A stretch of DNA of 31,015 nt, taken from IMG/VR virus record IMGVR_UViG_3300033150_000717, positions 1 to 31,015 of that record. The stretch is one strand, 5' to 3'. Positions 1 to 10,873 of this stretch are shown here, one piece after another. Each line of letters starts with the position of its first letter. Within the stretch, counting starts at the first letter, position 1. The stretch is from a virus. The position numbers and the translations under genes are program-made. The notes under the pieces are model-generated. The model saw only the letters and a program-made list of their open reading frames with translations, had not been told where the DNA came from and made no database searches.

Positions 1-73
1 ATTGATTCAGCCATTCATAGTCCTCATCGTCCACAATCGCCACCTGGCCTTGAGTTAACTCTATCGCTTTCAT
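1..73 (-). CDS. AP2/HNH homing endonuclease, N-terminal fragment (cut by window edge)
   Basis: Only the first 24 codons are inside the window; the start ATG is at 71-73. The visible residues, beginning MKAIELTQGQVAIVDDEDY, match the N-termini of the complete copies starting at 7644, 9602 and 10593, so this is another member of the same family. The HNH and AP2 parts lie beyond the window. Its upstream region carries the full promoter and double-helix leader seen at the other copies. The Shine-Dalgarno is weaker here (AGAAG rather than AGGAG). Confidence 0.85.
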   Translation of the reverse strand, partial: MKAIELTQGQVAIVDDEDYEWLNQ

Positions 74-87
74 AAGGTTACGCTTCT

Positions 88-188
88 AAAAAAGCCGCTT
101 TACCGGAGACAATAAGGCTCTTATGAGGAGGTTTACCGGTAAAAGCGGCTTCGATTTTATTATGATTTTCATAAAAGCCTCATTGTCT
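88..188 (-). promoter_or_regulatory. Leader element E1: interleaved double helix (pseudoknot topology) with U-tract
   Basis: Read on the minus strand, helix S1 is 176-188 with 107-119 (13 pairs, one G-U). Helix S2 is 136-151 with 92-106 (15 pairs, one bulged base). The order is S1, S2, S1', S2', so the helices interlock. S1' and S2' are directly adjacent, and six U follow S2' (88-93). Position 188, the first base of S1, is 7 nt below the -10 box and is the expected transcription start. The architecture matches four other elements in the window. Confidence 0.85.
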
Positions 189-194
189 ATAGTA

Positions 195-222
195 AGTATA
201 ACACATTTTTGGAGATTGTCAA
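195..222 (-). promoter_or_regulatory. Sigma-70 promoter of element E1
   Basis: Consensus -35 TTGACA (217-222), 16-bp spacer, -10 TATACT (195-200) preceded by an extended -10 TGn. An A/T-rich stretch lies upstream. The spacer resembles those of the promoters at 9717-9744 and 10705-10732, so the promoters look paralogous. Confidence 0.85.
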
Positions 223-234
223 ATAAAAACAATT

Positions 235-471
235 TTATTTATTTACACCATTTTTGGCATCCTGAAACAACTTCCACGTCTCAGCTTGCTTAACTAATGC
301 TGCTTTCATCTCATCTTCAGACAACTCGCCAACTTCTGCTCTTTTGGCTATTTCTGCTGATACCGCCGCCGTCCTATTAAGCAAGTCAGAATACTTCGGA
401 CTTAACTGGACGCCACTACATCCAACTACAAAAACCGCTACCAATACCAATACTACAATTCTTTTTTTCAT
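235..471 (-). CDS. Small predicted lipoprotein
   Basis: A 78-residue protein with a basic N-terminus (MKKR), a hydrophobic stretch of about 13 residues and a lipobox VVGC, with Cys18 as the predicted lipidated residue. The rest is a short helical, charged region. This predicts an envelope lipoprotein. Small phage lipoproteins can be outer spanins or superinfection-exclusion proteins, but nothing here decides between these and no inner spanin or endolysin is adjacent. It is the last gene before promoter E1. The Shine-Dalgarno AAGGTG fits the ATG at 471. Confidence 0.75.
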   Translation of the reverse strand: MKKRIVVLVLVAVFVVGCSGVQLSPKYSDLLNRTAAVSAEIAKRAEVGELSEDEMKAALVKQAETWKLFQDAKNGVNK

Positions 472-489
472 AATTACACCTTACCTTTC

Positions 490-888
490 CTAAAATGGTA
501 AATCTTCAAATCCTGCAGTTATCCTACAATTAACCGATTTACTCGTATCTATCTTCTCAATTAGTTTATTGATTGCTTCAATGGTTTCCAGACTCCACTC
601 GCTCTGTGCTTTTTTAATATCTTTTGACATCTGCATACGAGCATCAGTAAACTCTTTACAACAAATAGAACCCACATCGTGTATTGGGCAATCAACACAA
701 CAGTCATAATGCTGACATAATGCACAATGGACTGCTGAAGTCGATACAAGTTCATCGTCTCCTGCGTTGAGATATTCATCAGGACCTGCGTCTCGAATCT
801 GCTTCCAGTGCAGTGCAGAACATTCCCTTACGGCTATAGGACTTTTCATTGCGGCCTTTTTTATTTCTTCTTTAGTCAGCCACTTCAT
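490..888 (-). CDS. Cys-rich protein, paralogue A, with SSB-tip-like C-terminus
   Basis: A 132-residue protein of unknown function. It has a central cysteine cluster (CALCQHYDCCVDCPI, then ICC) suggesting metal binding, and a helical C-terminal part. It is a tandem duplicate of the gene at 885-1256: the first about 27 residues are nearly identical and the cysteine spacing is similar. Its last residues, FEDLPF, resemble the acidic C-terminal tip of SSB proteins; the phage SSB in this window ends DDLIPF. The ATG at 886-888 overlaps the stop of the upstream paralogue and uses Shine-Dalgarno AGGGAG. Confidence 0.75.
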   Translation of the reverse strand: MKWLTKEEIKKAAMKSPIAVRECSALHWKQIRDAGPDEYLNAGDDELVSTSAVHCALCQHYDCCVDCPIHDVGSICCKEFTDARMQMSKDIKKAQSEWSLETIEAINKLIEKIDTSKSVNCRITAGFEDLPF

Positions 889-1267
889 TTTTGTCTCCCT
901 TCAATTCTTTCTATCAACCTATCTATCGCTTCAAGAGTCTTCGGACTCCATTGCTCTTTTCCCTCATCTATATCCTCTTTTATCAAATCATTTGCGTCCT
1001 CATACTCTTCGCAACACACAAAGTCTTCATCGTGTATAGGACAGAGTTCGCAACGACATCGAAAACCATTTTCATAACGTTGACATAAAGCACAATAATT
1101 CTGACTTGTTGACACGACACCCTGTAGTTCTGCATCACAAAACTCCTTTGGTCCGGCATCCTTAATTTGTCTCCAATGTAGTGCAGAACATTCCCTTACG
1201 GCTATAGGACTTTTCATTGCGGCCTTTTTTATTTCTTCTTCAGTCAGCCACTTCATTTTTGTCTCCC
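818..1267. repeat. Near-identical direct repeats at the 5' ends of the two Cys-rich genes
   Basis: About 85 bp covering the Shine-Dalgarno, start codon and first about 25 codons (818-903) recurs nearly unchanged at about 1183-1267. Start codon to start codon distance is 368 bp. The rest of each gene has diverged much more. This indicates tandem duplication with either recent gene conversion or constraint at the 5' ends. Confidence 0.8.
885..1256 (-). CDS. Cys-rich protein, paralogue B
   Basis: Unknown function. From the ATG at 1254-1256 the protein is 123 residues; an upstream in-frame extension to 1277 is less likely because Shine-Dalgarno AGGGAG sits at the right distance from 1256. It shares MKWLTEEEIKKAAMKSPIAVRECSALHW-type N-terminal sequence and a Cys cluster (CALCQRY, CRCELCPIHD, CC) with its neighbour at 490-888, consistent with a small metal-binding fold. 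It lacks the FEDLPF tail of the neighbour. Its stop overlaps the next ATG as ATGA, suggesting coupled translation. Confidence 0.75.
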   Translation of the reverse strand: MKWLTEEEIKKAAMKSPIAVRECSALHWRQIKDAGPKEFCDAELQGVVSTSQNYCALCQRYENGFRCRCELCPIHDEDFVCCEEYEDANDLIKEDIDEGKEQWSPKTLEAIDRLIERIEGRQK

Positions 1268-1935
1268 TTCTTTCCAATAATTATTTTTGGTTCAACACCT
1301 GTTCGGTCCATTAACCATGCGCCAGGTCCATAAAGTAAACTTTTAACCTTGTCTCCCCACTGAATTACTGAGCTTGACTCATAAACATTTACTTTACTAA
1401 AATTAAAGGCTTCTATAAAGCTTGAATTATAACCAAATATCTCACTATTATCATAAGCCATTATTCTGCTATTACCATAAGCCTTTATTTGACTTGAATC
1501 AAAAGCACTTATTTCACTTAAATCATAAGCATTCACTAAACTTGAACCATGTGCTTCTACTTTGCCAAAAGCCGCTGTGATATAAGTATTACCACTAACT
1601 TTTCTTGTTTGATTTGGCAAAACCACTTTTGCCTTAAGCCATTTTTCTAATTCTTTTCTGACCACATTTTCAACTACTTTTGTAGTTTCTGTATTATACC
1701 ACGAAGGTAATAATGTTTGATTAAGTTCATATTCCCATTTTGGTAATGGCGAAATATAATCACAATTCGGTGGGGTAACCTTTACACATATAAGAGCGAA
1801 TTCACTCCGATTATCCCATATCTTAAGATTGAATTTTTCGAGTATGTCTTTATAAGATTCACTGATATCAGAACCCCAAAAAACATTATAATCGCTATTT
1901 TCTTTTGTTACTATAAAATTCGCTGACTGGCACAT
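1240..1935 (-). CDS. Protein with octapeptide beta-solenoid repeats
   Basis: A 231-residue protein. The N-terminal 120 residues are unrecognised. Residues from about 128 to 195 consist of about eight 8-residue repeats of the form x-S-S-x-I-x-A-Y/F (for example DSSQIKAY, GNSRIMAY, DNSEIFGY), the pattern of a narrow beta-solenoid. Similar repeats occur in phage and bacterial proteins of unknown role. It lies in the early operon, not with the tail genes, so a receptor-binding role is not implied. Shine-Dalgarno AAAGGAG precedes the ATG at 1935. Its 3' end overlaps the start of the next gene by 17 bp. Confidence 0.7.
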   Translation of the reverse strand: MCQSANFIVTKENSDYNVFWGSDISESYKDILEKFNLKIWDNRSEFALICVKVTPPNCDYISPLPKWEYELNQTLLPSWYNTETTKVVENVVRKELEKWLKAKVVLPNQTRKVSGNTYITAAFGKVEAHGSSLVNAYDLSEISAFDSSQIKAYGNSRIMAYDNSEIFGYNSSFIEAFNFSKVNVYESSSVIQWGDKVKSLLYGPGAWLMDRTGVEPKIIIGKKGDKNEVAD

Positions 1936-1977
1936 ATTTAGCTCCTTTCTCGGCCATTGCCGAAAATCTATTAAAAA

Positions 1978-2005
1978 TCAGGTGTAATCATTCAGGTGTA
2001 ATCAT
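1978..2005. repeat. Perfect 14-bp tandem duplication at the stop of the NinG-like gene
   Basis: The 14-mer TCAGGTGTAATCAT occurs twice in a row (1978-1991 and 1992-2005). The duplication spans the stop codon of the gene at 1988-2416. Without it the reading frame would end MITPDF rather than MITPE. Confidence 0.9.
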
Positions 2006-2416
2006 TTCAGATAATTCCTTGTATTTCTCTTCATAATCAATCGATATGTGCTTTTTATTATTTTTATTTCTTTCATACCACTCATAGGTCTCCGATTTAT
2101 TTTTTTTCATCCATTTCCAAAAGTTTTGTTGTTGTTCTAAATCACCGTGAGCAGCTATCCGGACACCATCAATTACAGAACCCCAAATATGACAGCGAAC
2201 ACAGAGACATATGCCATTATATATATCATGTCTAAACTGCGGATACGCACCTTTACTGAGTAGATGATGAGAGTTCAAACCTTTAATTGGCCTGCCATCC
2301 TTTGTCAGCTTTCCGGGCCTGCCACAAATTTCACAATGACCTACCAATCGAACAAGATGCGACCATAGATTATCGCATTGCTTCTTCCAATATCGTCTAT
2401 TTTTCTTTTTCATCAT
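1988..2416 (-). CDS. NinG/Rap-like HNH recombination nuclease
   Basis: A protein of about 142 residues with a CxxC zinc pair (CEICGR), an HH pair (NSHHLLSKGAYPQ) and a second CxxC (CLCVRCH). This is the layout of small HNH/NinG-type nucleases found in lambdoid recombination operons, where NinG (Rap) acts on branched DNA. Assignment to that group is by motif and context (SSB, annealase and helicase loader nearby), not by full-length match. The start is ambiguous (ATG at 2416 or 2413, or TTG at 2419). The 2416 ATG overlaps the stop of the endonuclease remnant just upstream. Confidence 0.65.
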   Translation of the reverse strand: MMKKKNRRYWKKQCDNLWSHLVRLVGHCEICGRPGKLTKDGRPIKGLNSHHLLSKGAYPQFRHDIYNGICLCVRCHIWGSVIDGVRIAAHGDLEQQQNFWKWMKKNKSETYEWYERNKNNKKHISIDYEEKYKELSEMITPE

Positions 2417-2457
2417 CAAGCTCTTTTAAAATTAAGATTTGCGTATTCACCAAACAA
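2416..2457 (-). pseudogene. 3' remnant of an AP2/HNH endonuclease gene
   Basis: Directly after the stop of the helicase-loader gene, in the same frame, 14 codons read LFGEYANLNFKRA-stop. This is the C-terminus of the AP2/HNH family: the copy at 3234-3704 ends LFGEYANLNLKRA. The nucleotide match over the 42 bases is 36/42. Everything upstream of this tail has been lost. The TGA of the remnant overlaps the ATG of the NinG-like gene, so the scar also supplies the upstream translation context of that gene. Confidence 0.85.
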
Positions 2458-3231
2458 CTATTTATTTATTATTTTCTTCAAAACTATCTCTTTGCTCATA
2501 AACCGGATACGATGTGCAATCCGCTCATCATATATTCCCGCTAATTTGTCCTGTTCCACATTGCTGCTAAAATGTGTAATAAAATTACGATAATACCGCT
2601 TGTTAATCAATGCATATAAAAGAACTCTGGCTGCCTCTGACTCTTGGCCTTTAGCTGTGCGTTTACCAGCCCCAATATCATCAAAACATAACACATCCGG
2701 CCTTATATACCGAGTTAATATATCTAATTCAGTCTCTTTTGCTGCTGGCTGATATGTATTTCGGACCTCAATTTGAAAATCCACCCAATTTAAAACCTTA
2801 GCACTTCTGCCATTAGCTAATGCGTCGCAGGCTATTGCGCATAGAGCCCAAGTTTTACCACTGTCGCTTGGCCCACAAATATAGCTTGACCTATCCCACT
2901 GAAGACTTAAATTTGGTATAAAATTAGCCAGCGTAGGGAGCTTGCCATCTCTAATATACAGCTCACCTACATTAGCCAACATCACCGCTTTTCTTATCTG
3001 CTCACCGTCGCTTGCTAACATCCATTCGTGTTGTCTTCTACATACTCTTTTACTACACACACGCTCTATAAAACTCTCCTCACTGTCAGCGGGCACAGCT
3101 TCTTTGGCGTGTTTAACTCCGCAAAATGGACATCGGACGTCTATATCTTTATAACGTATTCTGTTTGGATTATTTATCATCTTACTTAGCTCTGTCTTTT
3201 TCAGGAACATAATCTTTCCCAGTTTTTTCAT
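2458..3231 (-). CDS. DnaC/IstB-like AAA+ helicase loader
   Basis: A 257-residue AAA+ ATPase. Visible motifs: an N-terminal zinc-ribbon-like set (C34, C37, C59, C64); Walker A GPSDSGKT (120-127); Walker B LCFDDIG (181-187); sensor-1-like HFSSN ending at N224; candidate arginine finger in RIAHRIR (237-243). DnaC-type proteins load the replicative helicase at the origin, here presumably with the initiator encoded just upstream (3778-4575). It follows the truncated endonuclease gene by 2 bp, with an AAAAGAGC stretch as a weak ribosome site. An internal start at residue 8 (MFLKKTE) is also possible. Confidence 0.85.
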   Translation of the reverse strand: MKKLGKIMFLKKTELSKMINNPNRIRYKDIDVRCPFCGVKHAKEAVPADSEESFIERVCSKRVCRRQHEWMLASDGEQIRKAVMLANVGELYIRDGKLPTLANFIPNLSLQWDRSSYICGPSDSGKTWALCAIACDALANGRSAKVLNWVDFQIEVRNTYQPAAKETELDILTRYIRPDVLCFDDIGAGKRTAKGQESEAARVLLYALINKRYYRNFITHFSSNVEQDKLAGIYDERIAHRIRFMSKEIVLKKIINK

Positions 3232-3233
3232 TA

Positions 3234-3704
3234 TTAAGCTCTTTTAAGATTAAGATTAGCATATTCGCCAAATAATTCTAACGCCTTGGTATCATAGGCT
3301 TTAGCAGCTTCTGCCTCTGAAGTAAAATAGCCAAGATGAATGTGTTTTCCATTAAAGCAGATTCGTGCCCCCCATTTTTTCACATCTTTACGCCAACTAA
3401 CACCGTTATATCTTGACGAGGTTTCTTTGCCACACCAAGTCCGATGTTTGCGCTGATTCATTCCGTTTTGTTGATGGCTACAGATTCGTAAATTACATCG
3501 GCGATTATCGAGTGTATTATGGTTGATGTGGTCTGCCTGTCGTTTATCGCCGTATTTTAACCCTAAAATCTCTCGGTGCATAAGAATACGATGTTGTTTT
3601 CCATTGATTTGCGGAGAATGGCACCTGGCATAAAATGATGCTGTAATTGAACTCCAATGAGCATACCATTTCCACCGGTTAAGTTGTGCTTTTCTATGTA
3701 ACAT
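3234..3704 (-). CDS. AP2/HNH homing endonuclease, 5'-truncated and leaderless
   Basis: From the ATG at 3702-3704 the protein is 156 residues. It contains the HNH core (QADHINHNTLDNRRCNLR) and a C-terminal AP2 domain (RYNGVSWRKDVKKWGARI..LGYFTSEAEAAKAYD). It lacks the first about 20 residues (MKTIQLTQGQVALVDDEDY) found in the family, replaced by MLHRKAQ. The ATG lies only 6 bp below a consensus -10 box, so the transcript would be leaderless or nearly so. The double-helix leader present at the other copies is missing. A single deletion between promoter and gene explains both losses. Whether the protein is active is unknown. Confidence 0.75.
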   Translation of the reverse strand: MLHRKAQLNRWKWYAHWSSITASFYARCHSPQINGKQHRILMHREILGLKYGDKRQADHINHNTLDNRRCNLRICSHQQNGMNQRKHRTWCGKETSSRYNGVSWRKDVKKWGARICFNGKHIHLGYFTSEAEAAKAYDTKALELFGEYANLNLKRA

Positions 3705-3710
3705 ATTGTA

Positions 3711-3738
3711 AATATAGCCTATAACAGTCATTTGTCAA
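3711..3738 (-). promoter_or_regulatory. Sigma-70 promoter E6 without leader
   Basis: -35 TTGACA (3733-3738), 16-bp spacer, -10 TATATT (3711-3716). The expected start of transcription coincides with the ATG at 3704. Unlike the five other promoters of this kind, no S1/S2 helices follow. Confidence 0.7.
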
Positions 3739-3777
3739 GTGGCGAATTTCACATATCAAAAACTTACTCTTTCACCT

Positions 3778-4575
3778 TCATTTATCCTTCCAATATTCTT
3801 CACTGCCCGGGTCAAGCTCTTTTGTTTGTTCTGTTCGTCCGCAAACATAATCATAGCGACCTTCTAAAACCCTTGTATAATTCCTGTCGTTCTGGATTAT
3901 CCAGTCAAAATCTGCCTTCCAGCCTCTCTCACCTCCACCTGTAAGAAACTTGCTGGCGGATGTTTTATCAATTATTTCTCGCCAATGTTCCTTAAATTGC
4001 TTTTCCTTAAATCTGGTAGTAAGATGTTTTCTTCTAGATGCGGTTAATTCTCTGGCTTTAGGTAATTTTTCTGTTTGATTCCAATAATTGAAAAAATTGA
4101 TTATTTTAGCAGTTGTTTGTGCGCGCGCATTCTCTTCTGTATTTCTATTTTTGTATATCTCTACTGTATTACTCCCTTTGCTGTTTCCGCAATAGGGTAT
4201 TGTCGTTTCCGCAATAGGGTTCTTGTCGTTTCCGCAATAGGGTTCTTGACATTTTCGCAATACCCTTATTGTGTCATTTGCTTTTGGCGTTAGCCATAAT
4301 ATCCGTTCTACTATTTGCTTTCCTTTTCGTTTTTCTGACGATTTTACCCAACCTTTTGAAATTAAACTATTGATAATACGGCTACACCTGCACTTGCTTA
4401 ACCCTGAAAATGCGGCAAAATGACTGTTTGAGGCAAAACAACCACGCTCCGACTTTGACAAACTGTCGATTTCAACCAAAAAAACTTTTTCTTGAAGTGT
4501 TAATTCCTTATTTAGCCAGATATGACGTGGTATCCATACGCCCTTAAAGTCTCTTGATACGGTTTTTTCTATCAT
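3778..4575 (-). CDS. Replication initiator, lambda O-like, with embedded origin
   Basis: A 265-residue protein from the ATG at 4573-4575; an upstream in-frame start at 4620 would lie inside the leader and is rejected. Residues about 1-95 look like a winged helix-turn-helix (LTLQEKVFLVEIDSLSKSERGCFASNSHFAAFSGLSKCRCSRIINSLISKGWV). The middle is low complexity and encodes four iterons. The C-terminal part (SASKFLTGGGERGWKADFDWIIQ) is typical of phage replication proteins. This layout, with the origin inside the initiator gene, matches lambda O. The gene is driven by promoter/leader E5, and the DnaC-like loader lies downstream. Confidence 0.8.
   Translation of the reverse strand: MIEKTVSRDFKGVWIPRHIWLNKELTLQEKVFLVEIDSLSKSERGCFASNSHFAAFSGLSKCRCSRIINSLISKGWVKSSEKRKGKQIVERILWLTPKANDTIRVLRKCQEPYCGNDKNPIAETTIPYCGNSKGSNTVEIYKNRNTEENARAQTTAKIINFFNYWNQTEKLPKARELTASRRKHLTTRFKEKQFKEHWREIIDKTSASKFLTGGGERGWKADFDWIIQNDRNYTRVLEGRYDYVCGRTEQTKELDPGSEEYWKDK
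4060..4265. other. Putative replication origin: four iterons plus AT-rich flank
   Basis: The core TTTCCGCAATAGGG (plus strand) occurs exactly at 4184-4197, 4206-4219 and 4229-4242, and a fourth degenerate copy starts at 4252. Spacing is 22, 23 and 23 bp, about two helical turns, so a protein could bind each on the same face. An AT-rich stretch at about 4060-4180 adjoins on the downstream side of the gene, as the duplex-unwinding region does in lambda. Location inside the initiator gene supports an origin; activity is inferred. Confidence 0.8.
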
Positions 4576-4589
4576 AATATCTCTTGTCC

Positions 4590-4697
4590 AAAAGAAAAAC
4601 CCAGATACTGGCTGCAACAATCAAAACCATAAAGACTTGATATACCAGTATTTGGGTTGTTTTGTTTGCTATTAAAATATGGTTTTAACTGTTGCAT
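4590..4697 (-). promoter_or_regulatory. Leader element E5 upstream of the replication initiator
   Basis: S1 is 4679-4696 with 4613-4630: 18 consecutive pairs including two G-U. S2 is 4645-4658 with 4598-4611: 13 of 14 pairs with one A-C mismatch. The order is S1, S2, S1', S2' with 1 nt between S1' and S2'. The U-tract after S2' is UUUUUCUUUU (4590-4599), the same as in E3. The predicted transcription start (4697) is 1 nt before S1. Here the leader precedes a replication gene rather than an endonuclease. Confidence 0.85.
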
Positions 4698-4703
4698 AAT
4701 ATA

Positions 4704-4732
4704 ACTATATCACACTTATCGCCGCTTGTCAA
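4704..4732 (-). promoter_or_regulatory. Sigma-70 promoter of element E5
   Basis: -35 TTGACA (4727-4732), 17-bp spacer, -10 TATAGT (4704-4709) with TGn just upstream. It drives the replication initiator through leader E5. Confidence 0.8.
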
Positions 4733-4790
4733 ATGTTTTTCTGATATTTTTATTAAACACTGCTCTGGCAAAGACTTACCGTCAGTATCG

Positions 4791-4928
4791 CTACAGCTTT
4801 CGTAAGATACGCCCAGAAGCCTTACCGGCAATCCTGCGTATTATCCGCCTGCCGGCTTTACCTTTTCTGACAGCAGTTATATCTCCGAGTAACCTTGCTA
4901 ACCAGTATAAAACACCTCTTATTCTCAT
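4791..4928 (-). CDS. Small basic conserved-type protein (45 aa)
   Basis: A 45-residue ORF: a short hydrophobic/aromatic start (GVLYWLARLLGD) followed by a very basic tail (RKGKAGRRIIRRIAGK). The pattern LYxLARxLGDxxAVxxGKxGxRxxxRxxGKxxGRxxxKL recalls tiny hypothetical proteins I have seen in phages and other mobile elements, but I know no function. The base content and the amphipathic basic helix argue that it is real. The Shine-Dalgarno is weak. It is the last gene before promoter E5. Confidence 0.6.
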   Translation of the reverse strand: MRIRGVLYWLARLLGDITAVRKGKAGRRIIRRIAGKASGRILRKL

Positions 4929-4972
4929 ATTTCAGCTCACTTTGCCGAGACGGCCTCTAATCGGCTCTTCTT

Positions 4973-5094
4973 GGTAGATAAACTATTTCTATTTCGTAAT
5001 TATTGGTAGTTTTATACCAATCTGTTTTTCGGTCATTTTTCAGCCCTTATTTGACAAGGACTTACAGCGGTCAAAATGGCATAGTTTATCTACC
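4973..5094. repeat. 14-bp inverted repeat enclosing a 7-bp hairpin
   Basis: GGTAGATAAACTAT at 4973-4986 is perfectly complementary to 5081-5094, 94 bp away. Between them lies a second hairpin, ATTGGTA at 5002-5008 with TACCAAT at 5015-5021. In RNA the pair would join the 3' end of the gene at 5040-5498 to the leader of the 45-aa ORF. There is no U-tract, so it is not a simple terminator. Confidence 0.7.
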
Positions 5095-5498
5095 AGGCTA
5101 CCCGTTTTTTGCTTATATTTTCGTTTAGATTCAAGTTGTCGTTTTCGAGCGCATTTTTCACACACTTGTTTATATTTTGCCAGCAGAGCGCCGCATTCAC
5201 ATTTACGAATCTTTGCCTCTGGTATTGGTTTTTTGCGGGCATTGAGATATATTTCTCTTGCCTCTAACCGTTCTGCCTGTAAGTCCGGATTATCTTTTGG
5301 GCTTGGATTGTCTGCCAGCGGTAAAACAACTTGCTCGAAATACCGACAGGGCTTCATAGGACTGCAACCTAATAAGCATTTATCGTGTGCCTGAACAAGC
5401 AATTTAGGATTTAGTAGGCCCTCTGGCATTACACCAAGACAAGAGTTATTCGGTAAAAAATTAGCGCAATCGTGTCGGGCCATTGCATATGGCGTCAT
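5040..5498 (-). CDS. Cys-rich zinc-ribbon protein of unknown function
   Basis: A 152-residue protein. The N-terminal half has scattered cysteines (MARHDCANF..CLGV..CLLGCSPMKPCRYFE), a pattern known in phage proteins of unknown role. The C-terminal half has a zinc-ribbon motif (CECGALLAKYKQVCEKCARKR) followed by a lysine-rich tail, suggesting nucleic-acid binding. It is directly downstream of SSB and translated from the ATG at 5498 with a strong AAGGGAG site. No catalytic motif is visible. Confidence 0.7.
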   Translation of the reverse strand: MTPYAMARHDCANFLPNNSCLGVMPEGLLNPKLLVQAHDKCLLGCSPMKPCRYFEQVVLPLADNPSPKDNPDLQAERLEAREIYLNARKKPIPEAKIRKCECGALLAKYKQVCEKCARKRQLESKRKYKQKTGSLVDKLCHFDRCKSLSNKG

Positions 5499-5510
5499 AA
5501 TTTTTCTCCC

Positions 5511-5912
5511 TTAAAACGGTATAAGGTCATCATTCGTCGCCGGTGCATTCGGTGTATCTTCCGGAATATCAGACGAACTTCTATAATTATCACCAAGAAA
5601 TTGAAACGATTCTATGAATATCCTGTGCCTGGAGCGCTTTGAGCCATCTTGGGCCTGCCAAGTGTCCAGGCATAATCGCCCTTCTATGAGTAAGGGGTTG
5701 CCTTTGGTCAAATACTTTTTCAGCGTTTCGGCGGCAGCTCCATAAGCACGACAATCTACATAGCAAACCTCTTCTTTTTGTTGGCCGTTTTTATCTTTAT
5801 ACTTGCGGTTAGTGGCGAGACCTATCTCCGTAACAGGTGTTTGCGATGGTAGATAAGTCATTTCCGGGTCTCTTGTGAGATGGCCTGCTAAAATTATTTT
5901 GTTGTAATTCAT
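5511..5912 (-). CDS. ssb: Single-stranded DNA-binding protein
   Basis: A 133-residue OB-fold SSB from the ATG at 5910-5912, with an AAAGGA site; the longer frame to 5996 overlaps the upstream gene and is not needed. Recognisable SSB sequence includes NKIILAGHLTRDPEMTYLPSQTPVTEIGLATNRKY, then VDCRAYG.AAETLKKYLTKGNPLLIEGRL. The C-terminus is the acidic tip DDLIPF, used by SSBs to recruit repair and replication partners. It lies between the Rad52-like annealase and the initiator, fitting a role in phage recombination and replication. Confidence 0.93.
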   Translation of the reverse strand: MNYNKIILAGHLTRDPEMTYLPSQTPVTEIGLATNRKYKDKNGQQKEEVCYVDCRAYGAAAETLKKYLTKGNPLLIEGRLCLDTWQAQDGSKRSRHRIFIESFQFLGDNYRSSSDIPEDTPNAPATNDDLIPF

Positions 5913-5916
5913 AGTT

Positions 5917-6336
5917 TTATCCTTTCTTATTAAACCAATTTCTATCTGGAGGAGGTATCGAGCAACCAAGAGTAACAGCCGCCCAACGTATTGCATTGTC
6001 GATGAACTGTTTAGCGTCTTTAACAGTCATATTGCGTTTTAGTAACCCTTCACTGCAATAGTGTTTAATTATGGTATCTGCCATGTCTTCTGATATTGGC
6101 ACACCCATCACTTCTATACCATTTTCCACTAACTGCTTGTGAATAGTAGGCAAAATTACGGCGTAATAATACCCTAATTGGTGTTGTGTTATAGGTTTAC
6201 CGACAGGCCGGATAGTCTCTGAAATCCAAGTACCGTCAGGCAAAGACTCAATAGCTTCCTGTCTCATTTTATAATATGTCCAGACTATCTCATTATCTCT
6301 TATCTGTCCGACATGTCTTTGTATCCTTTTACTCAT
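5917..6336 (-). CDS. Conserved phage recombination-operon protein
   Basis: A 139-residue protein between the Rad52-like gene and ssb. The segment KPITQHQLGYYYAVILPTIHKQL, followed by a helical region around DMADTIIKHYCSEGLL, resembles small phage proteins (NinB-like or RecT-neighbour proteins) in recombination operons. I cannot name the family with confidence. No catalytic residues can be assigned. The spacing of 4 bp to ssb and 43 bp to the annealase gene supports co-expression. Confidence 0.65.
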   Translation of the reverse strand: MSKRIQRHVGQIRDNEIVWTYYKMRQEAIESLPDGTWISETIRPVGKPITQHQLGYYYAVILPTIHKQLVENGIEVMGVPISEDMADTIIKHYCSEGLLKRNMTVKDAKQFIDNAIRWAAVTLGCSIPPPDRNWFNKKG

Positions 6337-6379
6337 TTCTCTCTCTCGAAAAACGGCGACATCAATTGTCTATATCTAT

Positions 6380-7126
6380 CTAATCGTTTTTTTTTGAAAG
6401 CGATAAATCAAACGATTTCACTATATATTCGGCTTCGCTGGGCACAACGCCACCTAATTTGTCCATCAGTAATTCGTAATCATTATCTTTCAGTTGGTAA
6501 TGTTCCATAAGCCAGAGTATGAAATTAGGAATGTTCTCTTTATCCGGCAAAGCCGGCCCGAAGATACCTTGCATTTTTTTCCATAGCAATTCTTTTGCCT
6601 TTTGCATATATTTTTTGCTTGCACCGTCAGGACTTCCGCCGGATAAAGATGCTTTTGGCGGTTTTGTTTTTGGCACGTTATTTGTCGCATTATCTGCTAA
6701 CCAATCTTTGTCATATAAGCAATTTCCAAAGGCATTACCAAAACTACGCAAACAGCGCTTAAGTGCGTCCGTAACCGCTTCTTTTACAGCGCTTTCATAT
6801 GCGTCGCCTATATTGACATAACTTTGGCCTATACCATAGCCTATATCCTCTGCAACAGTGCCGTCTTTTAACTCTATCCGATATTTGCATATTACACCTA
6901 TATCATTTCTTATGCCTTTCTTTGTCTCAACAGCTTCACTATAAACCTCTTTTATGCCTTCATCGACAAACATCCGGCTCCATTCACCCGGGCCAAATAT
7001 CTCATTTGCTTTTTGGATTGCCTGCCATCCTTCTATATATGTAAGCGTAAGACCTGCCTGCTTGCGAGTATGTAACGTCTCTGGCAACGGACATTCATTT
7101 AATTGTTTTATTTGTTCGTCATTCAT
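6380..7126 (-). CDS. Rad52/22-like single-strand annealing recombinase
   Basis: A 248-residue protein. Residues about 25-155 match the Rad52/22 family: LTYIEGWQAIQKANEIFGPGEWS, then EDIGYGIGQSYVNIGDAYESAVKEAVTDALKRCLRSFGNAFGNCLYDK. Such phage proteins anneal complementary strands and drive homologous recombination with SSB. The C-terminal about 90 residues are variable. The ATG overlaps the stop of the upstream endonuclease gene as ATGA (7123-7126), and the Shine-Dalgarno GAAAGG is inside the end of the endonuclease gene, so translation is coupled. Confidence 0.9.
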   Translation of the reverse strand: MNDEQIKQLNECPLPETLHTRKQAGLTLTYIEGWQAIQKANEIFGPGEWSRMFVDEGIKEVYSEAVETKKGIRNDIGVICKYRIELKDGTVAEDIGYGIGQSYVNIGDAYESAVKEAVTDALKRCLRSFGNAFGNCLYDKDWLADNATNNVPKTKPPKASLSGGSPDGASKKYMQKAKELLWKKMQGIFGPALPDKENIPNFILWLMEHYQLKDNDYELLMDKLGGVVPSEAEYIVKSFDLSLSKKND

Positions 7127-7644
7127 TTTTTTAACCTTTCAAAATTAACATTAGCAAATTCATTGGATAACTCTATTGCTTTTTTGTCATAAGCTTTGGC
7201 TGCTTCAATTTCGGAATTAAAACTTCCCAAATGAAAATGTTTCCCTCTATCTGTAATTTGGGCTATCCATTTTTTGTTTTGTTTGCTCCAACAAACTCCA
7301 ATGAAATTGGAAGTAACTTTGTGTCCTCTATTGTTTTTCTTTCGTTTATAACGATTCCGTGCATTTTGTTGATTAGTGCATATCCTTAAATTACATCTGC
7401 GATTATCCAGAGTATTGTGATTTATATGGTCAACCTGGCGTTTATCACCTGTTTTGAGATTAAGAATGACACGAGCCATTCGGATTACTGTTGGTTTTTT
7501 AGATTTTCGATAAACATTTCGTCTGGCACGAAATGATGATGTTTTTGATGACCAATCAGCCGTCCATTTCCATTGGCTTAACCATTCATAATCCTCATCA
7601 TCCACTATCGCTACCTGCCCTTGTGTTAATTGTATTGTTTTCAT
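7123..7644 (-). CDS. AP2/HNH homing endonuclease
   Basis: A 173-residue protein. Residues 1-45 form the conserved N-terminal module (MKTIQLTQGQVAIVDDEDYEWLSQWKW). The HNH core is at about 70-95 (VDHINHNTLDNRRCNLRICTNQQN). The DNA-binding AP2 domain is at about 112-160 (NFIGVCWSKQNKKWIAQIT..LGSFNSEIEAAKAYD). Such proteins cut DNA to spread their own genes. The gene has its own promoter and leader (E2), and its 3' end overlaps the Rad52-like gene, so it may also serve as the head of that operon. Shine-Dalgarno AGGAG lies 9 nt before the ATG. Confidence 0.9.
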   Translation of the reverse strand: MKTIQLTQGQVAIVDDEDYEWLSQWKWTADWSSKTSSFRARRNVYRKSKKPTVIRMARVILNLKTGDKRQVDHINHNTLDNRRCNLRICTNQQNARNRYKRKKNNRGHKVTSNFIGVCWSKQNKKWIAQITDRGKHFHLGSFNSEIEAAKAYDKKAIELSNEFANVNFERLKK

Positions 7645-7658
7645 AAGTTTATACTCCT

Positions 7659-7750
7659 AAAAAAAGGCCAGTCAGAGTTGCTACGCAGAATGGGCTTTCA
7701 CCCGAAATGCCTCTGACTGGCTGATTAAGTTGTATAACTCTGCGTAGCAT
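7659..7750 (-). promoter_or_regulatory. Leader element E2
   Basis: S1 is 7739-7749 with 7679-7689 (11 perfect pairs). S2 is 7711-7721 with 7667-7677 (11 perfect pairs). The helices interlock in order S1, S2, S1', S2' with 1 nt between S1' and S2', and seven U follow (7659-7665). The loop before S1' can form a small GGGU/GCCC hairpin with a GAAA tetraloop. The predicted start (7750) is 1 nt before S1. Confidence 0.85.
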
Positions 7751-7756
7751 ATTAGA

Positions 7757-7785
7757 AGTATAACCTATGATTCACAGTTTGTCAA
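7757..7785 (-). promoter_or_regulatory. Sigma-70 promoter of element E2
   Basis: -35 TTGACA (7780-7785), 17-bp spacer, -10 TATACT (7757-7762). The -35 box overlaps the TGA stop codon of the Gam-like gene (7782-7784), so the promoter is packed against the upstream gene. Confidence 0.85.
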
Positions 7786-8360
7786 GCATCTTTTTTCTCT
7801 GGTAAAGATAAAGTAATTGGTTTCGCATAAAAAACCTCTTTGCCCACTATATATTCGCACCCGTCAGGGATTTCACCCGTTGTCTTTATATGCTCTTCCA
7901 GCGGTTTGATATATAAATCAGTAGCTATCTGCCGTAACTCAGCCGGAGCTAACAGTTTTTTGGCCGCCTCAATATCAATGTTTTTAACTGCATCGATAAA
8001 ATCATTATTGCTAAAATTCTCATATGACCACAAAATAGCTGCGTTTATATCTGTGATGACCAGTTTGTCCGGTTGTGTTCGATAACCAATAGTGCCAGTT
8101 AGTAGTTTTACAGATTTTTTCTTACGCTGGTCTCGAATCAGTTTGTCCGATTCAGATTTGAATGCAGAACCATAGAAATTATCCATAGCTTCTTCTTCTT
8201 TATCGAGGTCAGCCATTATTTCTTTGAATCGGTTCTTGACGGCCTGACGAGTTGACTCTATTTGACCTTTTCGCTTTAAAACCCATTCAACGACCCAGTT
8301 TTTATCTTCGTTTCTGTTTAACTCATTAAATTCATTCTCTAATGTTTTCACGATGTCCAT
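7782..8360 (-). CDS. gam: Mu Gam-like DNA-end-binding protein
   Basis: A 192-residue protein. Residues about 15-85 are a long charged helical region (predicted coiled coil). Next comes KKKSVKLLTGTIGYRTQPDKLVITD, a motif typical of the Mu Gam family (host-nuclease inhibitor, Ku-like). Gam binds double-strand ends and protects linear phage DNA from RecBCD-type exonucleases. A place in the operon upstream of the annealase fits. It overlaps the preceding small gene (8332-8508). Confidence 0.8.
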   Translation of the reverse strand: MDIVKTLENEFNELNRNEDKNWVVEWVLKRKGQIESTRQAVKNRFKEIMADLDKEEEAMDNFYGSAFKSESDKLIRDQRKKKSVKLLTGTIGYRTQPDKLVITDINAAILWSYENFSNNDFIDAVKNIDIEAAKKLLAPAELRQIATDLYIKPLEEHIKTTGEIPDGCEYIVGKEVFYAKPITLSLPEKKDA

Positions 8361-8508
8361 TGTCGCCTCCGTCTAATATATCAGCAACAACCTCTTTTGT
8401 CTTACTGCCCAAAAGCTCTGCCAGCTCTTGCGGTAATCCGTCATTGATAAGCTGCTTGACAGTTCGATTTTCCTGAATAGCTGGCTTATTGTCAGTTCCG
8501 ATGAACAT
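8332..8508 (-). CDS. Small early protein, unknown
   Basis: From the ATG at 8508 (or 8511) the protein is about 58 residues: MFIGTDNKPAIQENRTVKQLINDGLPQELAELLGSKTKEVVADILDGGD. Shine-Dalgarno AAAGGAG fits one of these adjacent ATGs better than the upstream GTG/ATG frame at 8538. It is acidic and helical. It overlaps both its upstream neighbour and the Gam-like gene, so translation is probably coupled. No family recognised. Confidence 0.6.
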   Translation of the reverse strand: MFIGTDNKPAIQENRTVKQLINDGLPQELAELLGSKTKEVVADILDGGDNGHRENIRE

Positions 8509-8698
8509 CATAGTACTCCTTTTGATACTCTCCACCAATCCCCGATGGCCCGATAGATATGAGCGGCATTTTTTCTTTACTCAATTTTTGACCATCCTGA
8601 TAGGTCTCTATCTCATCGACTATCCGCTTCGCAATATCTTTTATAAGAAGAAGTTCGATAAATACATTAGTGAATTTTTTATATATTTCTTTTTCCAC
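8492..8698 (-). CDS. Small early protein, unknown, GTG start
   Basis: A 68-residue protein starting with GTG at 8696-8698, with AAGGAG 7 nt upstream inside the 3' end of the previous gene. The sequence is MEKEIYKKFTNVFIELLLIKDIAKRIVDEIETYQDG.., helical N-terminal half, then a glycine-containing tail. No recognised domain. Tight packing on both sides supports a real gene. Confidence 0.6.
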   Translation of the reverse strand: MEKEIYKKFTNVFIELLLIKDIAKRIVDEIETYQDGQKLSKEKMPLISIGPSGIGGEYQKEYYDVHRN

Positions 8699-8699
8699 A

Positions 8700-9089
8700 T
8701 TATTTCTCCTTAATTCGCCTTTCTATTTGTTCTTCTATCAATTGTATTTGTAGATAACTATAGAGTTTAGTTCTACCATTCACTATCTTTATCGGCTTTA
8801 TCTTGGTTAACTTGATAATATCCGATATGAATTTCGGCTTCTTCTTGAATCGCTTTGCAATCTCAGCTACAGTCCAGACCAGCGGTGTTTTAGATGTTTT
8901 GTCAGGGATAGATATTTCATTATCTAACCAATTTCTTAATTCCACGGCGTCATTGTGTTCCATTACAACCGCTAATGTTCCTTCACGAGGATGCTCGATA
9001 CGAACCAATACCCGTCCGGATTTGGACGATAAATTGGTTGCGTAAGCCACAAATCGTGTGTCTTGGGATTTTTTCTCATATGCGCCCAT
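8700..9089 (-). CDS. Protein with C-terminal helix-turn-helix
   Basis: A 129-residue protein. The N-terminal about 65 residues look like a small beta-rich domain (TRFVAYATNLSSKSGRVLVRIEHPREGTLAVVMEHNDA). Residues about 70-120 (VWTVAEIAKRFKKKPKFISDIIKLTKIKPIKIVNGRTKLYS) look like an excisionase/MerR-type winged helix that would bind DNA. A regulatory role is an inference. Its Shine-Dalgarno AAGGAG is formed by the last sense codons (AAG GAG) of the endonuclease gene upstream. Confidence 0.7.
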   Translation of the reverse strand: MGAYEKKSQDTRFVAYATNLSSKSGRVLVRIEHPREGTLAVVMEHNDAVELRNWLDNEISIPDKTSKTPLVWTVAEIAKRFKKKPKFISDIIKLTKIKPIKIVNGRTKLYSYLQIQLIEEQIERRIKEK

Positions 9090-9092
9090 CTT

Positions 9093-9602
9093 TTACTCCT
9101 TAAAATTAAGATTAGCAAACTCGCCAAATAACTCTTTAGCTTTTTTATCATATGCTTTGGCGGCTTCAATTTCGGAAGTGAAATAGCCAAGGTAAATACG
9201 TTTGCCATTATGCCGGATATATGCCCGCCACTTTTTCGCCCTTTTATCCCAACAAACACCGCTATACCTGGACGAGCATTTTTTGCCGGCATGTGGCCGA
9301 CGTTTGCGCCGATTCATTCCATTTTGCTGATGAGTGCAAATACGCAAATTACACCGGCGGTTGTCTAATGTGTCGTGATTTATGTGGTCTGCCTGCCGTT
9401 TATCGCCTTTTTGAAGGCCTAAAACCTCTCGTGCCATAGAAATTGTGTGCCTTTTTCCGTTGACTGTTTTTGAGTGGCGTTCAGCATAAAACGATTTTGT
9501 ATTTGGAGACCAGACAGCAAACCATTTAAATTGATTCAACCCCCCATAGTCCTCATCGTTCACCAGCGCCACCTGGCCTTGAGTTAACTCTATAGTTCTC
9601 AT
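9093..9602 (-). CDS. AP2/HNH homing endonuclease
   Basis: A 169-residue protein from the ATG at 9600-9602 (MRTIELTQGQVALVNDEDYGG); the longer frame to 9710 runs through the structured leader and is rejected. HNH core: QADHINHDTLDNRRCNLRICTHQQNGMNRRK. AP2 domain: RYSGVCWDKRAKKWRAYIRHNGKRIYLGYFTSEIEAAKAYDKKA. It ends FANLNFKE, and its final codons AAG GAG act as the Shine-Dalgarno for the gene at 8700-9089. It has its own promoter and leader (E3). Confidence 0.9.
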   Translation of the reverse strand: MRTIELTQGQVALVNDEDYGGLNQFKWFAVWSPNTKSFYAERHSKTVNGKRHTISMAREVLGLQKGDKRQADHINHDTLDNRRCNLRICTHQQNGMNRRKRRPHAGKKCSSRYSGVCWDKRAKKWRAYIRHNGKRIYLGYFTSEIEAAKAYDKKAKELFGEFANLNFKE

Positions 9603-9614
9603 CTGATAATCTCC

Positions 9615-9710
9615 AAAAGAAAAACCAGCCAGAGATGAAGCATAGGTTGGACGATTTGTCCAAAATGTGGCTCTGGCTGGTTCATTTTGTTGGATATTCT
9701 TATGCTTCAT
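9615..9710 (-). promoter_or_regulatory. Leader element E3
   Basis: S1 is 9701-9710 with 9635-9644 (10 perfect pairs). S2 is 9671-9682 with 9623-9634 (12 perfect pairs). S1' and S2' are directly adjacent. The U-tract is UUUUUCUUUU. The loop before S1' holds a 6-bp hairpin (TTGGAC/GTCCAA). The predicted start falls exactly on the first base of S1 (9710). Confidence 0.87.
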
Positions 9711-9716
9711 ATTATA

Positions 9717-9744
9717 AGTATAACCTATTTTTGAAGATTGTCAA
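9717..9744 (-). promoter_or_regulatory. Sigma-70 promoter of element E3
   Basis: -35 TTGACA (9739-9744), 16-bp spacer, -10 TATACT (9717-9722). The spacer closely resembles that of promoter E1. Confidence 0.85.
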
Positions 9745-9761
9745 ATAAATTATTCTTTGGC

Positions 9762-9800
9762 AAAAATTGCGGCCCCGACACGGGAAGAAATCGAGGCCGC
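9762..9800 (-). terminator. Intrinsic terminator after the zinc-ribbon gene
   Basis: On the minus strand a 10-bp stem (9791-9800 with 9769-9778, one G-U pair) with a 12-nt loop is followed by AAUUUUUG. It separates the transcription unit started at 10705-10732 from promoter E3 just below. Confidence 0.8.
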
Positions 9801-9819
9801 TACAGCAGTAAGGAGATAC

Positions 9820-10017
9820 TCACCCTTCTCTCATTTCAAATTCGTGGCACGATAGATGAGCTTCTTTATGATTGACGACTATCAAATCATCGTCATCAAT
9901 TATTTGCTCACAATACTGACAAACAGGTTTATCGTCATATAAACCGCCACCTCCCATATGAATAGGCGTGTGAAGCTCTTTGTCTAAATTAGCATCTCTA
10001 ATATACTTGTGTGCCAT
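9820..10017 (-). CDS. Small zinc-ribbon-like protein
   Basis: A 65-residue protein: MAHKYIRDANLDKEL.., a glycine run (MGGGGLYDD), CQYC, an acidic stretch IIDDDDLIVVNHKEAH and LSCHEFE. The CxxC and the HxxxxC pair suggest one bound zinc. No named family. GAGGAGA is a good Shine-Dalgarno for the ATG at 10017. It is the last gene before the terminator at 9762-9800. Confidence 0.65.
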   Translation of the reverse strand: MAHKYIRDANLDKELHTPIHMGGGGLYDDKPVCQYCEQIIDDDDLIVVNHKEAHLSCHEFEMREG

Positions 10018-10029
10018 TTTGTGTCTCCT

Positions 10030-10593
10030 CTATTTTTTGACATAGGCGTTAACATTGACAATAACAGGCTTGTCTTTGTATTTCTCCTTTCTAAAATTAA
10101 GATTAGCAAAATCGCCAAAATACTTTTTGGCTGCTACATCATATGCTTTGGCGGCTTCTATTTCAGAAGTGAAAAGACCAAGATGTGTTCGTTTTCCATT
10201 AAACCTGATTTGCGCTTGCCATTTTTTTGCGTTTTTATGCCAATAAACACCGTTATATCCGGATGAACATTTTTTGCCGGCATGTGTCCGATATTTACGC
10301 TGATTCATATGATTTTGCTGATTAGTACAGATACGTAAATTACACCTGCGGTTGTCCAAAGTGTCGTGGTTTATGTGGTCGGCCTGCCACTTGTCGCCTT
10401 TTTGAAGGCCTAATATCTCTCGATGCATAAGAATGGAATATTGTTTTCCATTTATTTTCTGTGATTTGCGGACGGCGTAATACGATTTTATACTTGGATA
10501 CCATGAAGCAAACCACTTATGTTGGCTTAATCGTTTGTAGTCTTCATCATCCACCAATGCCACTTGGCCTTGTGTAAGTTGTATTGTCTTCAT
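10030..10593 (-). CDS. AP2/HNH homing endonuclease with C-terminal extension
   Basis: A 187-residue protein from the ATG at 10591-10593 (MKTIQLTQGQVALVDDEDYKRLSQHKWFASWYPS). HNH core: QADHINHDTLDNRRCNLRICTNQQN. AP2 domain: GYNGVYWHKNAKKWQAQIRFNGKRTHLGLFTSEIEAAKAYDVAA. Unlike the other copies it continues past FANLNFRKE for about 17 residues (KYKDKPVIVNVNAYVKK). It is the first gene of the early region, expressed from promoter and leader E4. Confidence 0.9.
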   Translation of the reverse strand: MKTIQLTQGQVALVDDEDYKRLSQHKWFASWYPSIKSYYAVRKSQKINGKQYSILMHREILGLQKGDKWQADHINHDTLDNRRCNLRICTNQQNHMNQRKYRTHAGKKCSSGYNGVYWHKNAKKWQAQIRFNGKRTHLGLFTSEIEAAKAYDVAAKKYFGDFANLNFRKEKYKDKPVIVNVNAYVKK

Positions 10594-10606
10594 AAGGTTA
10601 TACTCC

Positions 10607-10698
10607 AAAAAAAACCCAGACACCGGCTGTCAGAGCTAAAATCACAAAGATTTGGCTTACCGATGTCTGGATTAGTTTGTGGTATTAGCTCTGACATA
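10607..10698 (-). promoter_or_regulatory. Leader element E4
   Basis: S1 is 10685-10696 with 10628-10639 (12 perfect pairs). S2 is 10660-10670 with 10616-10626 (11 pairs, one G-U). There is 1 nt between S1' and S2', and eight U follow (10607-10614). A 5-bp AAATC/GATTT hairpin can form in the loop before S1'. The predicted start is within 2 nt of S1. Confidence 0.85.
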
Positions 10699-10704
10699 TT
10701 ATTA

Positions 10705-10732
10705 AGTATAACATCATTTCGGAGTATGTCAA
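10705..10732 (-). promoter_or_regulatory. Sigma-70 promoter of element E4
   Basis: -35 TTGACA reads on the minus strand of TGTCAA at 10727-10732; 16-bp spacer; -10 TATACT (10705-10710). This is the most upstream early promoter in the window. The stretch 10733-10803 above it is very AT-rich and I see no gene in it. Confidence 0.83.
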
Positions 10733-10803
10733 ATAAAAAATAAGAATTTTTCACAAAAGATTATAATTCTTTTTAGGATATAGAGTTAAAAAAGGATATA
10801 TTT

Positions 10804-10837
10804 AAAAAAACGGTTCGGACACAAAAGCCCGAACCGT
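10804..10837 (-). terminator. Intrinsic terminator of the late operon
   Basis: A 9-bp GC-rich stem (10829-10837 with 10810-10818) with a 10-nt loop is followed on the minus strand by a run of seven U (10804-10810, the first paired in the stem). It lies 36 bp beyond the stop of the last late gene. Confidence 0.88.
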
Positions 10838-10873
10838 AGAAAGGAGGAAAAAATGAAAAAATTTCTATTTTGT

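What the first reader, a model, noticed from the sequence alone, without database searches (positions are those of the whole stretch)
88..10732. Five copies of a promoter-coupled interleaved-helix leader (S1-S2-S1'-S2' plus U-tract)
Seen directly: at 88-222, 4590-4732, 7659-7785, 9615-9744 and 10607-10732 a TTGACA/TATAAT-type promoter is followed by two long helices in pseudoknot order. Pairs are S1 = 13, 18, 11, 10, 12 and S2 = 15, 13 of 14, 11, 12, 11 (order E1, E5, E2, E3, E4). S1' and S2' are 0-1 nt apart and a U-tract starts right after S2'. Predicted transcription starts fall within 2 nt of the first base of S1 in all five. The stem sequences differ between copies while pairing is retained, which is the signature of a selected structure. 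Inference: S1 forms first and its topology decides whether the S2-plus-U hairpin terminates, giving promoter-proximal attenuation or antitermination. Alternatives are a put-like antiterminator or 5'-end protection. I do not recognise it as a described RNA family.
Basis: partly seen in the sequence, partly recalled or inferred. Interest (0 to 1): 0.92.

Follow-up and report, generated by a model that had tools for sequence, protein, structure and literature searches.

The report
Interleaved-helix leader of phage homing endonucleases
In this phage, five promoters are followed directly by a short RNA with two crossing hairpins that also encodes a tiny protein starting at the RNA's first base; the same device precedes DNA-cutting "selfish" genes in unrelated phages and probably decides whether those genes are made.

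Summary
All five leaders lie on the minus strand as promoter–S1–S2–S1'–S2'–U-tract–RBS–gene, 7 to 15 sd below shuffles. In homologous leaders 11 of 20 stem pairs show compensatory changes. (1) The leader heads homing-endonuclease genes: four of five window copies precede AP2-HNH genes, and the architecture recurs upstream of AP2-HNH, other HNH and GIY-YIG genes in other phages (28 of 157 HNH starts, 2 expected). (2) An ATG usually sits at the predicted +1, as the first bases of S1, and opens a leaderless frame through both helices (19 of 23 open, 6.5 expected, P about 4e-8). (3) In several copies the promoter strand, or S1', is complementary to the RBS. My best reading is a portable expression gate. 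Own-promoter transcripts pass the S2 terminator and expose the gene only if a ribosome enters at the 5' AUG before S1' hides it. Readthrough transcripts are silenced by promoter:RBS pairing, as for T4 I-TevI. The anatomy and its selection are shown; termination, leaderless translation and the switching logic are inferred. I found no Rfam family and no paper describing it. New variant of a known kind.

The parts
195..222 (-). E1 promoter TTGACA-16-TATACT
91..188 (-). E1 interleaved helices: S1 188-169, S2 152-136, S1' 126-107, S2' 106-91, then U-tract
   Evidence: z -15.1
86..183 (-). E1 leader frames: MRLL (183-169) overlapping (ATGA) MKIIIKSKPLLPVNLLIRALLSPVKRLF (172-86, stop in the U-tract)
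1..73 (-). Start of an AP2-HNH-type gene (MKAIELTQGQVAIVDDEDYEWLNQ...), cut by the window end
   Evidence: similarity to the other three N-termini
7757..7785 (-). E2 promoter TTGACA-17-TATACT; its -35 overlaps the stop codon of the upstream gene (7782-8360)
7667..7749 (-). E2 interleaved helices
   Evidence: covariation
7649..7750 (-). E2 leaderless ORF MLRRVIQLNQPVRGISGESPFCVATLTGLFLGV, ATG at predicted +1
7123..7644 (-). AP2-HNH endonuclease behind E2
   Evidence: PF00847, PF13392
9717..9744 (-). E3 promoter TTGACA-16-TATACT
9622..9710 (-). E3 interleaved helices
9093..9710 (-). E3 leaderless ORF, in frame with the HNH gene (ATG at 9710; gene ATG at 9602)
10705..10732 (-). E4 promoter TTGACA-16-TATACT
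10613..10696 (-). E4 interleaved helices
10590..10697 (-). E4 leaderless ORF MSELIPQTNPDIGKPNLCDFSSDSRCLGFFWSITL, stop overlaps gene ATG (ATGA)
10030..10593 (-). AP2-HNH endonuclease behind E4
4704..4732 (-). E5 promoter TTGACA-17-TATAGT
4598..4696 (-). E5 interleaved helices
4572..4697 (-). E5 leaderless ORF MQQLKPYFNSKQNNPNTGISSLYGFDCCSQYLGFSFGQEIL, stop overlaps gene ATG (ATGA)
3778..4575 (-). Replication initiator (O-like/DnaD-like, HTH_36) behind E5; relatives elsewhere lack the leader
3234..3738 (-). Remnant cassette: TTGACA 3738-3733, TATATT 3716-3711, ATG 3704-3702 (same -10 to ATG spacing) running in frame straight into an AP2-HNH body; stems and the usual HNH N-terminus are missing

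Best explanation
The leader is a portable 5' expression gate carried mainly by free-standing homing-endonuclease genes. A sigma70-type promoter starts the RNA at or next to an AUG that is also the first bases of S1. If a ribosome enters this leaderless AUG while the RNA is still short, it follows RNA polymerase through a frame kept free of stops. It then keeps S1 and S2 from pairing, so the S2:S2'-plus-U terminator fails, and it ends at or near the gene's start codon and helps open it. If no ribosome enters in time, S1' pairs with S1 and hides the AUG, S2:S2' forms next to the U-tract, and the transcript ends at about 100 nt or stays untranslatable. Where present, complementarity between the promoter strand and the RBS (E2, E3, E4) silences the gene on transcripts that read in from upstream, because only those contain the promoter sequence. 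Shown: architecture, covariation, position of the ATG, open-frame selection, U-tract enrichment, RBS complementarity. Inferred: start-site use, translation of the frame, termination, and the direction of the switch.
For: Five copies far beyond chance; compensatory changes in both helices of homologous leaders. ATG within -6..+8 of S1 in 23 of 37 leaders, 11 at exactly -1; the commonest best -10 position is 12 nt before the A of that ATG, which makes it +1. ATG frame open in 19 of 23, against 7.8 (dinucleotide) or 6.5 (structure-preserving) expected, P = 7e-7 and 4e-8. T runs after S2' enriched. Stops fall after S2', often as ATGA on the gene start (E4, E5, L032, L161; L026 read by eye). Own promoter:RBS pairing exceeds cross-pairing, P = 0.0005; readthrough RNA of E2, E3 and E4 folds with the RBS locked by the promoter segment. 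The cassette at 3704 keeps promoter spacing and ATG, fused in frame to HNH after loss of the stems, as if that ATG is a usable start.
Against: No RNA or protein data. About a third of the curated leaders have no ATG at S1, and about 40% lack a run of 4 T, so neither the frame nor termination is universal. E1 opens with a 4-codon frame and needs a second overlapping one. The S2:S2' loop (about 20-40 nt, containing S1') is long for an intrinsic terminator and the simple terminator scan does not list it. S1:S1' forming first could hinder S2 instead, which would reverse the logic. Promoter:RBS pairing is weak in E1 and E5.
Confidence: 0.45

Rival explanations
1. Purely translational gate: the interleaved helices abut the ribosome-binding site and hide it; ribosomes that translate the leaderless ORF open them and re-initiate at the overlapping gene start. 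The U-tract is only an unstructured U-rich approach to the RBS, not a terminator.
For: S2' ends only 9-27 nt before the start codon in all 37 leaders (the search itself limited this range); ATGA overlaps; some clear members (L161, L217) have no T run; S1' pairs with the RBS in a subset (L007, L012, L024, L026), own versus cross P = 0.0002.
Against: T runs are strongly enriched right after S2' (59% against 10%), and all five window copies have 5 to 8 consecutive T.
Confidence: 0.25
2. One reading: S1:S1' closes first and, by trapping S2 in a closed loop, prevents the full S2:S2' terminator, so untranslated RNA reads through and a ribosome on S1 permits termination.
For: S1' is completed immediately before S2' in every copy (0-1 nt gap); both helices have similar energies.
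Against: Gives no reason for a stop-free frame through S2'.
Confidence: 0.12
3. 5'-end protection: both helices form together as a coaxial S1'-S2' pseudoknot that buries the 5' nucleotide and stabilises the mRNA.
For: S1 begins at the predicted +1 and S1'/S2' are adjacent, which allows coaxial stacking.
Against: Explains neither the open frame nor the U-tract nor the RBS complementarity.
Confidence: 0.08
4. put-like antiterminator: nascent leader RNA modifies RNA polymerase so that it ignores downstream terminators in the early operons.
For: Leaders head the successive early operons in this window.
Against: No conserved sequence or fixed fold that a polymerase could recognise; the stems differ freely; most carriers elsewhere are endonuclease genes.
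Confidence: 0.04
5. DNA-level feature, such as terminal inverted repeats or a recombination site of the mobile gene.
For: Promoter and RBS regions are inverted repeats in some copies (E3, L182).
Against: Compensatory change with free stem sequence, position tied to +1 and to the RBS, and frame selection all point to RNA.
Confidence: 0.03

Closest known systems
T4-type control of homing endonucleases (I-TevI, I-TevII, I-TevIII, segB; Aeh1 mobE): RBS hairpin broken by an internal promoter (PMC2988022)
   Same: Homing endonuclease; internal promoter lies in the 5' arm of an RBS-sequestering helix, so only upstream-initiated transcripts are locked (E2, E3, E4).
   Different: Sigma70-type promoter in an early region, an additional interleaved S1/S2 structure with U-tract, and a leaderless ORF; the promoter:RBS helix is absent or weak in E1 and E5.
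Leader-peptide transcription attenuators (trp/his/ilv type)
   Same: Short translated ORF overlapping alternative RNA helices and a U-tract hairpin before the structural gene.
   Different: No control codons, no SD for the leader ORF, interleaved rather than mutually exclusive nested hairpins, terminator inside the ORF and its stop at the gene start.
Leaderless uORFs that control downstream genes (mycobacterial Cys-rich uORFs; PMC9031893)
   Same: AUG at the 5' end of the mRNA opens a small ORF ahead of the regulated gene.
   Different: No Cys runs; dominated by long paired stems and U-tract; phage-borne.
repY-pseudoknot-repZ control of IncI/IncK-type plasmids (my own knowledge; PMC10724649 was only listed)
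   Same: A leader peptide coupled to a pseudoknot controls a downstream gene.
   Different: There the pseudoknot involves the rep RBS region and is countered by an antisense RNA; neither is seen here.
HK022 put RNA (own knowledge)
   Same: Structured RNA directly downstream of an early phage promoter.
   Different: put is two nested hairpins with conserved sequence; this is interleaved with free sequence.

Membership tests
T4 I-TevI-type RBS-sequestration switch | RBS paired only in transcripts initiated upstream of the internal promoter | tested here: met
   Met for E2, E3 and E4 by predicted folds; weak in E1 and E5, so it holds for part of the set only
T4 I-TevI-type RBS-sequestration switch | Late or middle phage promoter | tested here: not met
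   TTGACA/TATACT sigma70-type promoters
Leader-peptide transcription attenuator | Translated leader ORF overlapping the alternative helices | tested here: inconclusive
   ORF present and selected to stay open in 19 of 23; translation itself not testable here
Leader-peptide transcription attenuator | Intrinsic terminator before the gene | tested here: inconclusive
   U-tract after S2' enriched, but the hairpin loop is long and the simple scan does not list it
Leader-peptide transcription attenuator | Control codons of one amino acid | tested here: not met
   Leader peptides of the window share no codon run
Leaderless mRNA | AUG at the transcription start | tested here: inconclusive
   Predicted from -10 spacing; the start is not mapped
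HK022 put RNA | Two nested hairpins of conserved sequence | tested here: not met
   Helices are interleaved and sequence-free
HDV-like ribozyme | P1-P2-P3-P1'-P4-P2' with catalytic J4/2 between P1' and P2' | tested here: not met
   0-1 nt between S1' and S2' in the window copies; no Rfam match
Any Rfam 15 family | Score at or above gathering threshold | tested here: not met

The most novel reading that the evidence does not exclude
A widespread, sequence-free RNA device in which a leaderless ORF's start codon, a pseudoknot and an intrinsic terminator are overlaid, so that expression of phage homing endonucleases requires a ribosome to catch the nascent 5' end in the brief interval before S1' emerges, while readthrough mRNA is kept silent.
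Probability: 0.4. Interest if true: 0.85.

Novelty: new variant of a known kind. Interest (0 to 1): 0.72.

Why it matters
T4 endonucleases are the textbook case of multi-layer control of selfish phage genes, but PMC2988022 says the translational control of the remaining free-standing ones is not obvious and untested. This device recurs in front of several endonuclease types (AP2-HNH, other HNH, NUMOD3-HNH, GIY-YIG) with little sequence conservation, so covariance models are poorly suited to find it; it must be found by architecture. It links 5'-terminal AUGs, pseudoknots and termination in about 100 nt and gives directly testable predictions, and the module could serve as a compact transcription-translation coupling switch.

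Tried and rejected
Rfam at gathering and relaxed thresholds: nothing but a chance snoRNA. Megablast of the left 11.5 kb against phages: none. A pattern for the E2-type loop found only the two phages already known. Leader as a property of the rep gene: rejected, none upstream of the rep gene in 80 rep loci (977 starts scanned, including two E2-type loci that did score). A relaxed scan (GTG/TTG starts, no RBS filter) of 20 GTDB genome loci and 10 cultured-phage loci gave long GC-driven lists but no convincing leader in the part shown; in several of the cultured phages the HNH gene follows directly on an upstream gene. A first gapped scorer over-extended helices and was replaced. HDV-like ribozyme considered for its P1-P2-P1'-P2' order: no room for J4/2. 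Amino-acid-specific attenuation: no control codons. A covariance model was not built because the stems carry no common sequence and pseudoknots are not modelled. Literature searches found neighbours but no description.
Full report
WHAT IS THERE. The window is a 31-kb tailed-phage sequence held as a virus record. The real genes read on the minus strand: a left early region with replication initiator, DnaC-like loader, SSB, Rad52-like recombinase and Gam-like protein, and structural genes from 10.9 kb to the terminase at 31 kb. The five elements are in the early region, on the minus strand, each as promoter, S1, S2, S1', S2', U-tract, RBS, gene. Recalculation gives z from -7.3 to -15.1. In the whole-window scan four of them score -43 to -53 and the next minus-strand site -22 (the best plus-strand site is -33.9); E1 was missed there, I think only because its S2 has a bulged base. 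The scanner's best score in 119 shuffled strands was -37.7. A plain promoter scan finds six 11-of-12 promoters on 1-11000: these five and a remnant.

SELECTION ON THE STRUCTURE. E2, E3 and leaders from three other phage records (L303, L276, L302) are homologous. With the stems aligned, 99% of cells pair and 11 of 20 pairs carry compensatory changes; shuffles give 3.6 and slid controls 0-2; both helices contribute. I aligned stems only and in the register of the structure, which favours pairing, but the slid controls show the size of the effect.

WHO CARRIES IT. E1-E4 precede AP2-HNH genes. Among 157 non-redundant AP2-HNH or KxCxKC-HNH starts (IMG/VR loci plus the window's own), 28 have a leader scoring below -36 (2.0 expected) and 25 below -38 (0.9 expected). 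Scanning the held parts of 18 leader-bearing records plus the window (3064 ATG starts) gave 35 unique hits below -40 against 3 in shuffles, and 22 against 0 below -46. Carriers include NUMOD3-HNH, EndoVII-like HNH and a GIY-YIG T5orf172 gene, plus a few non-endonucleases (the rep gene of E5, a DNA methylase, several unknowns). Relatives of the E5 rep gene lack it (80 loci), so I read E5 as a captured copy; that is inference. I chose these phages because they had HNH leaders, so their per-genome rate does not generalise.

THE LEADERLESS FRAME. In E2-E5 an ATG lies at the first base of S1 or one base before it, 6-7 nt after the -10 hexamer, that is at predicted +1. Over 37 curated leaders (a few obvious GC-rich or tandem-repeat hits removed by hand) 23 have such an ATG, 11 at exactly -1. 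The frame from it stays open through S2' in 19 of 23; expected 7.8 by dinucleotide shuffles and 6.5 when base pairs are kept, P = 7e-7 and 4e-8. Fisher against the other two frames gives 3e-7, or 1.7e-4 after leaving out the first bases, where ATGA would force a stop in another frame. In two of the four exceptions (L272-6023, L274-12723) a second ATG four bases upstream is open and in frame with the gene. Peptide sequence does not look conserved beyond what homology of the RNA gives, and homologous leaders use different frames, so passage of ribosomes, not the peptide, seems to matter. These tests treat leaders as independent, although some are homologous.

RBS CONTROL. Promoter-to-RBS complementarity of own pairs exceeds cross-pairs (-8.75 against -7.24, P = 0.0005), carried by E2, E3, E4, L182, L015 and a few others, some of them homologous; in another subset S1' pairs with the RBS (P = 0.0002). 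Predicted folds of readthrough RNA lock the RBS in E2-E4. This is the arrangement described for I-TevI and others in PMC2988022.

A NATURAL DELETION. At 3738-3702 the same promoter spacing and ATG run in frame straight into an AP2-HNH body; stems and the usual HNH N-terminus are gone (sequence; promoter; domains; alignment). It suggests that the leader ATG can serve as a start, on one example.

MECHANISM. The frame, start codon in S1, U-tract after S2' and stop at the gene start together favour a gate opened by a ribosome that enters the nascent 5' end. Termination is the weakest step: 41% of the leaders lack a T run of 4 or more and the loop is long.

LIMITS. All evidence is sequence. The host is unknown; leaderless initiation efficiency depends on it. 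Energies are simple stack sums without loop terms. Literature cover is the open-access library only.

Noticed in passing
window 4183-4262: 3.5 tandem copies of a 23-bp unit (GTTTCCGCAATAGGGTTCTTGTC) inside the replication-initiator gene, like lambda O iterons; probably the replication origin.
   Followed up: partly
window 3234-3738: AP2-HNH gene with own TTGACA/TATATT promoter and in-frame ATG at predicted +1, apparently a leader-deleted cassette.
   Followed up: partly
window 490-888 and 885-1277: Adjacent paralogous genes (MKWLT.EEIKKAAMKSPIAVRECSALHW, Cys-rich) with near-identical starts: a recent duplication.
   Followed up: no
window about 4973-4986 and 5081-5094: 14-bp perfect inverted repeat GGTAGATAAACTAT / ATAGTTTATCTACC flanking the 3' end of gene 5040-5498.
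   Followed up: no
L289 near 13478 (-), L293 near 5075 (-): Leaders with a third interleaved helix (order A-B-C-A'-B'-C'), seen by eye from the sequences.
   Followed up: no
window 10810-10837: Strong conventional terminator (11 pairs, then a T run) between the structural genes and the E4 promoter.
   Followed up: no
L295 near 1434 (-): Cluster of GTGATCC(C/T)GGGATCACTA-like repeats in another leader-bearing phage record.
   Followed up: no
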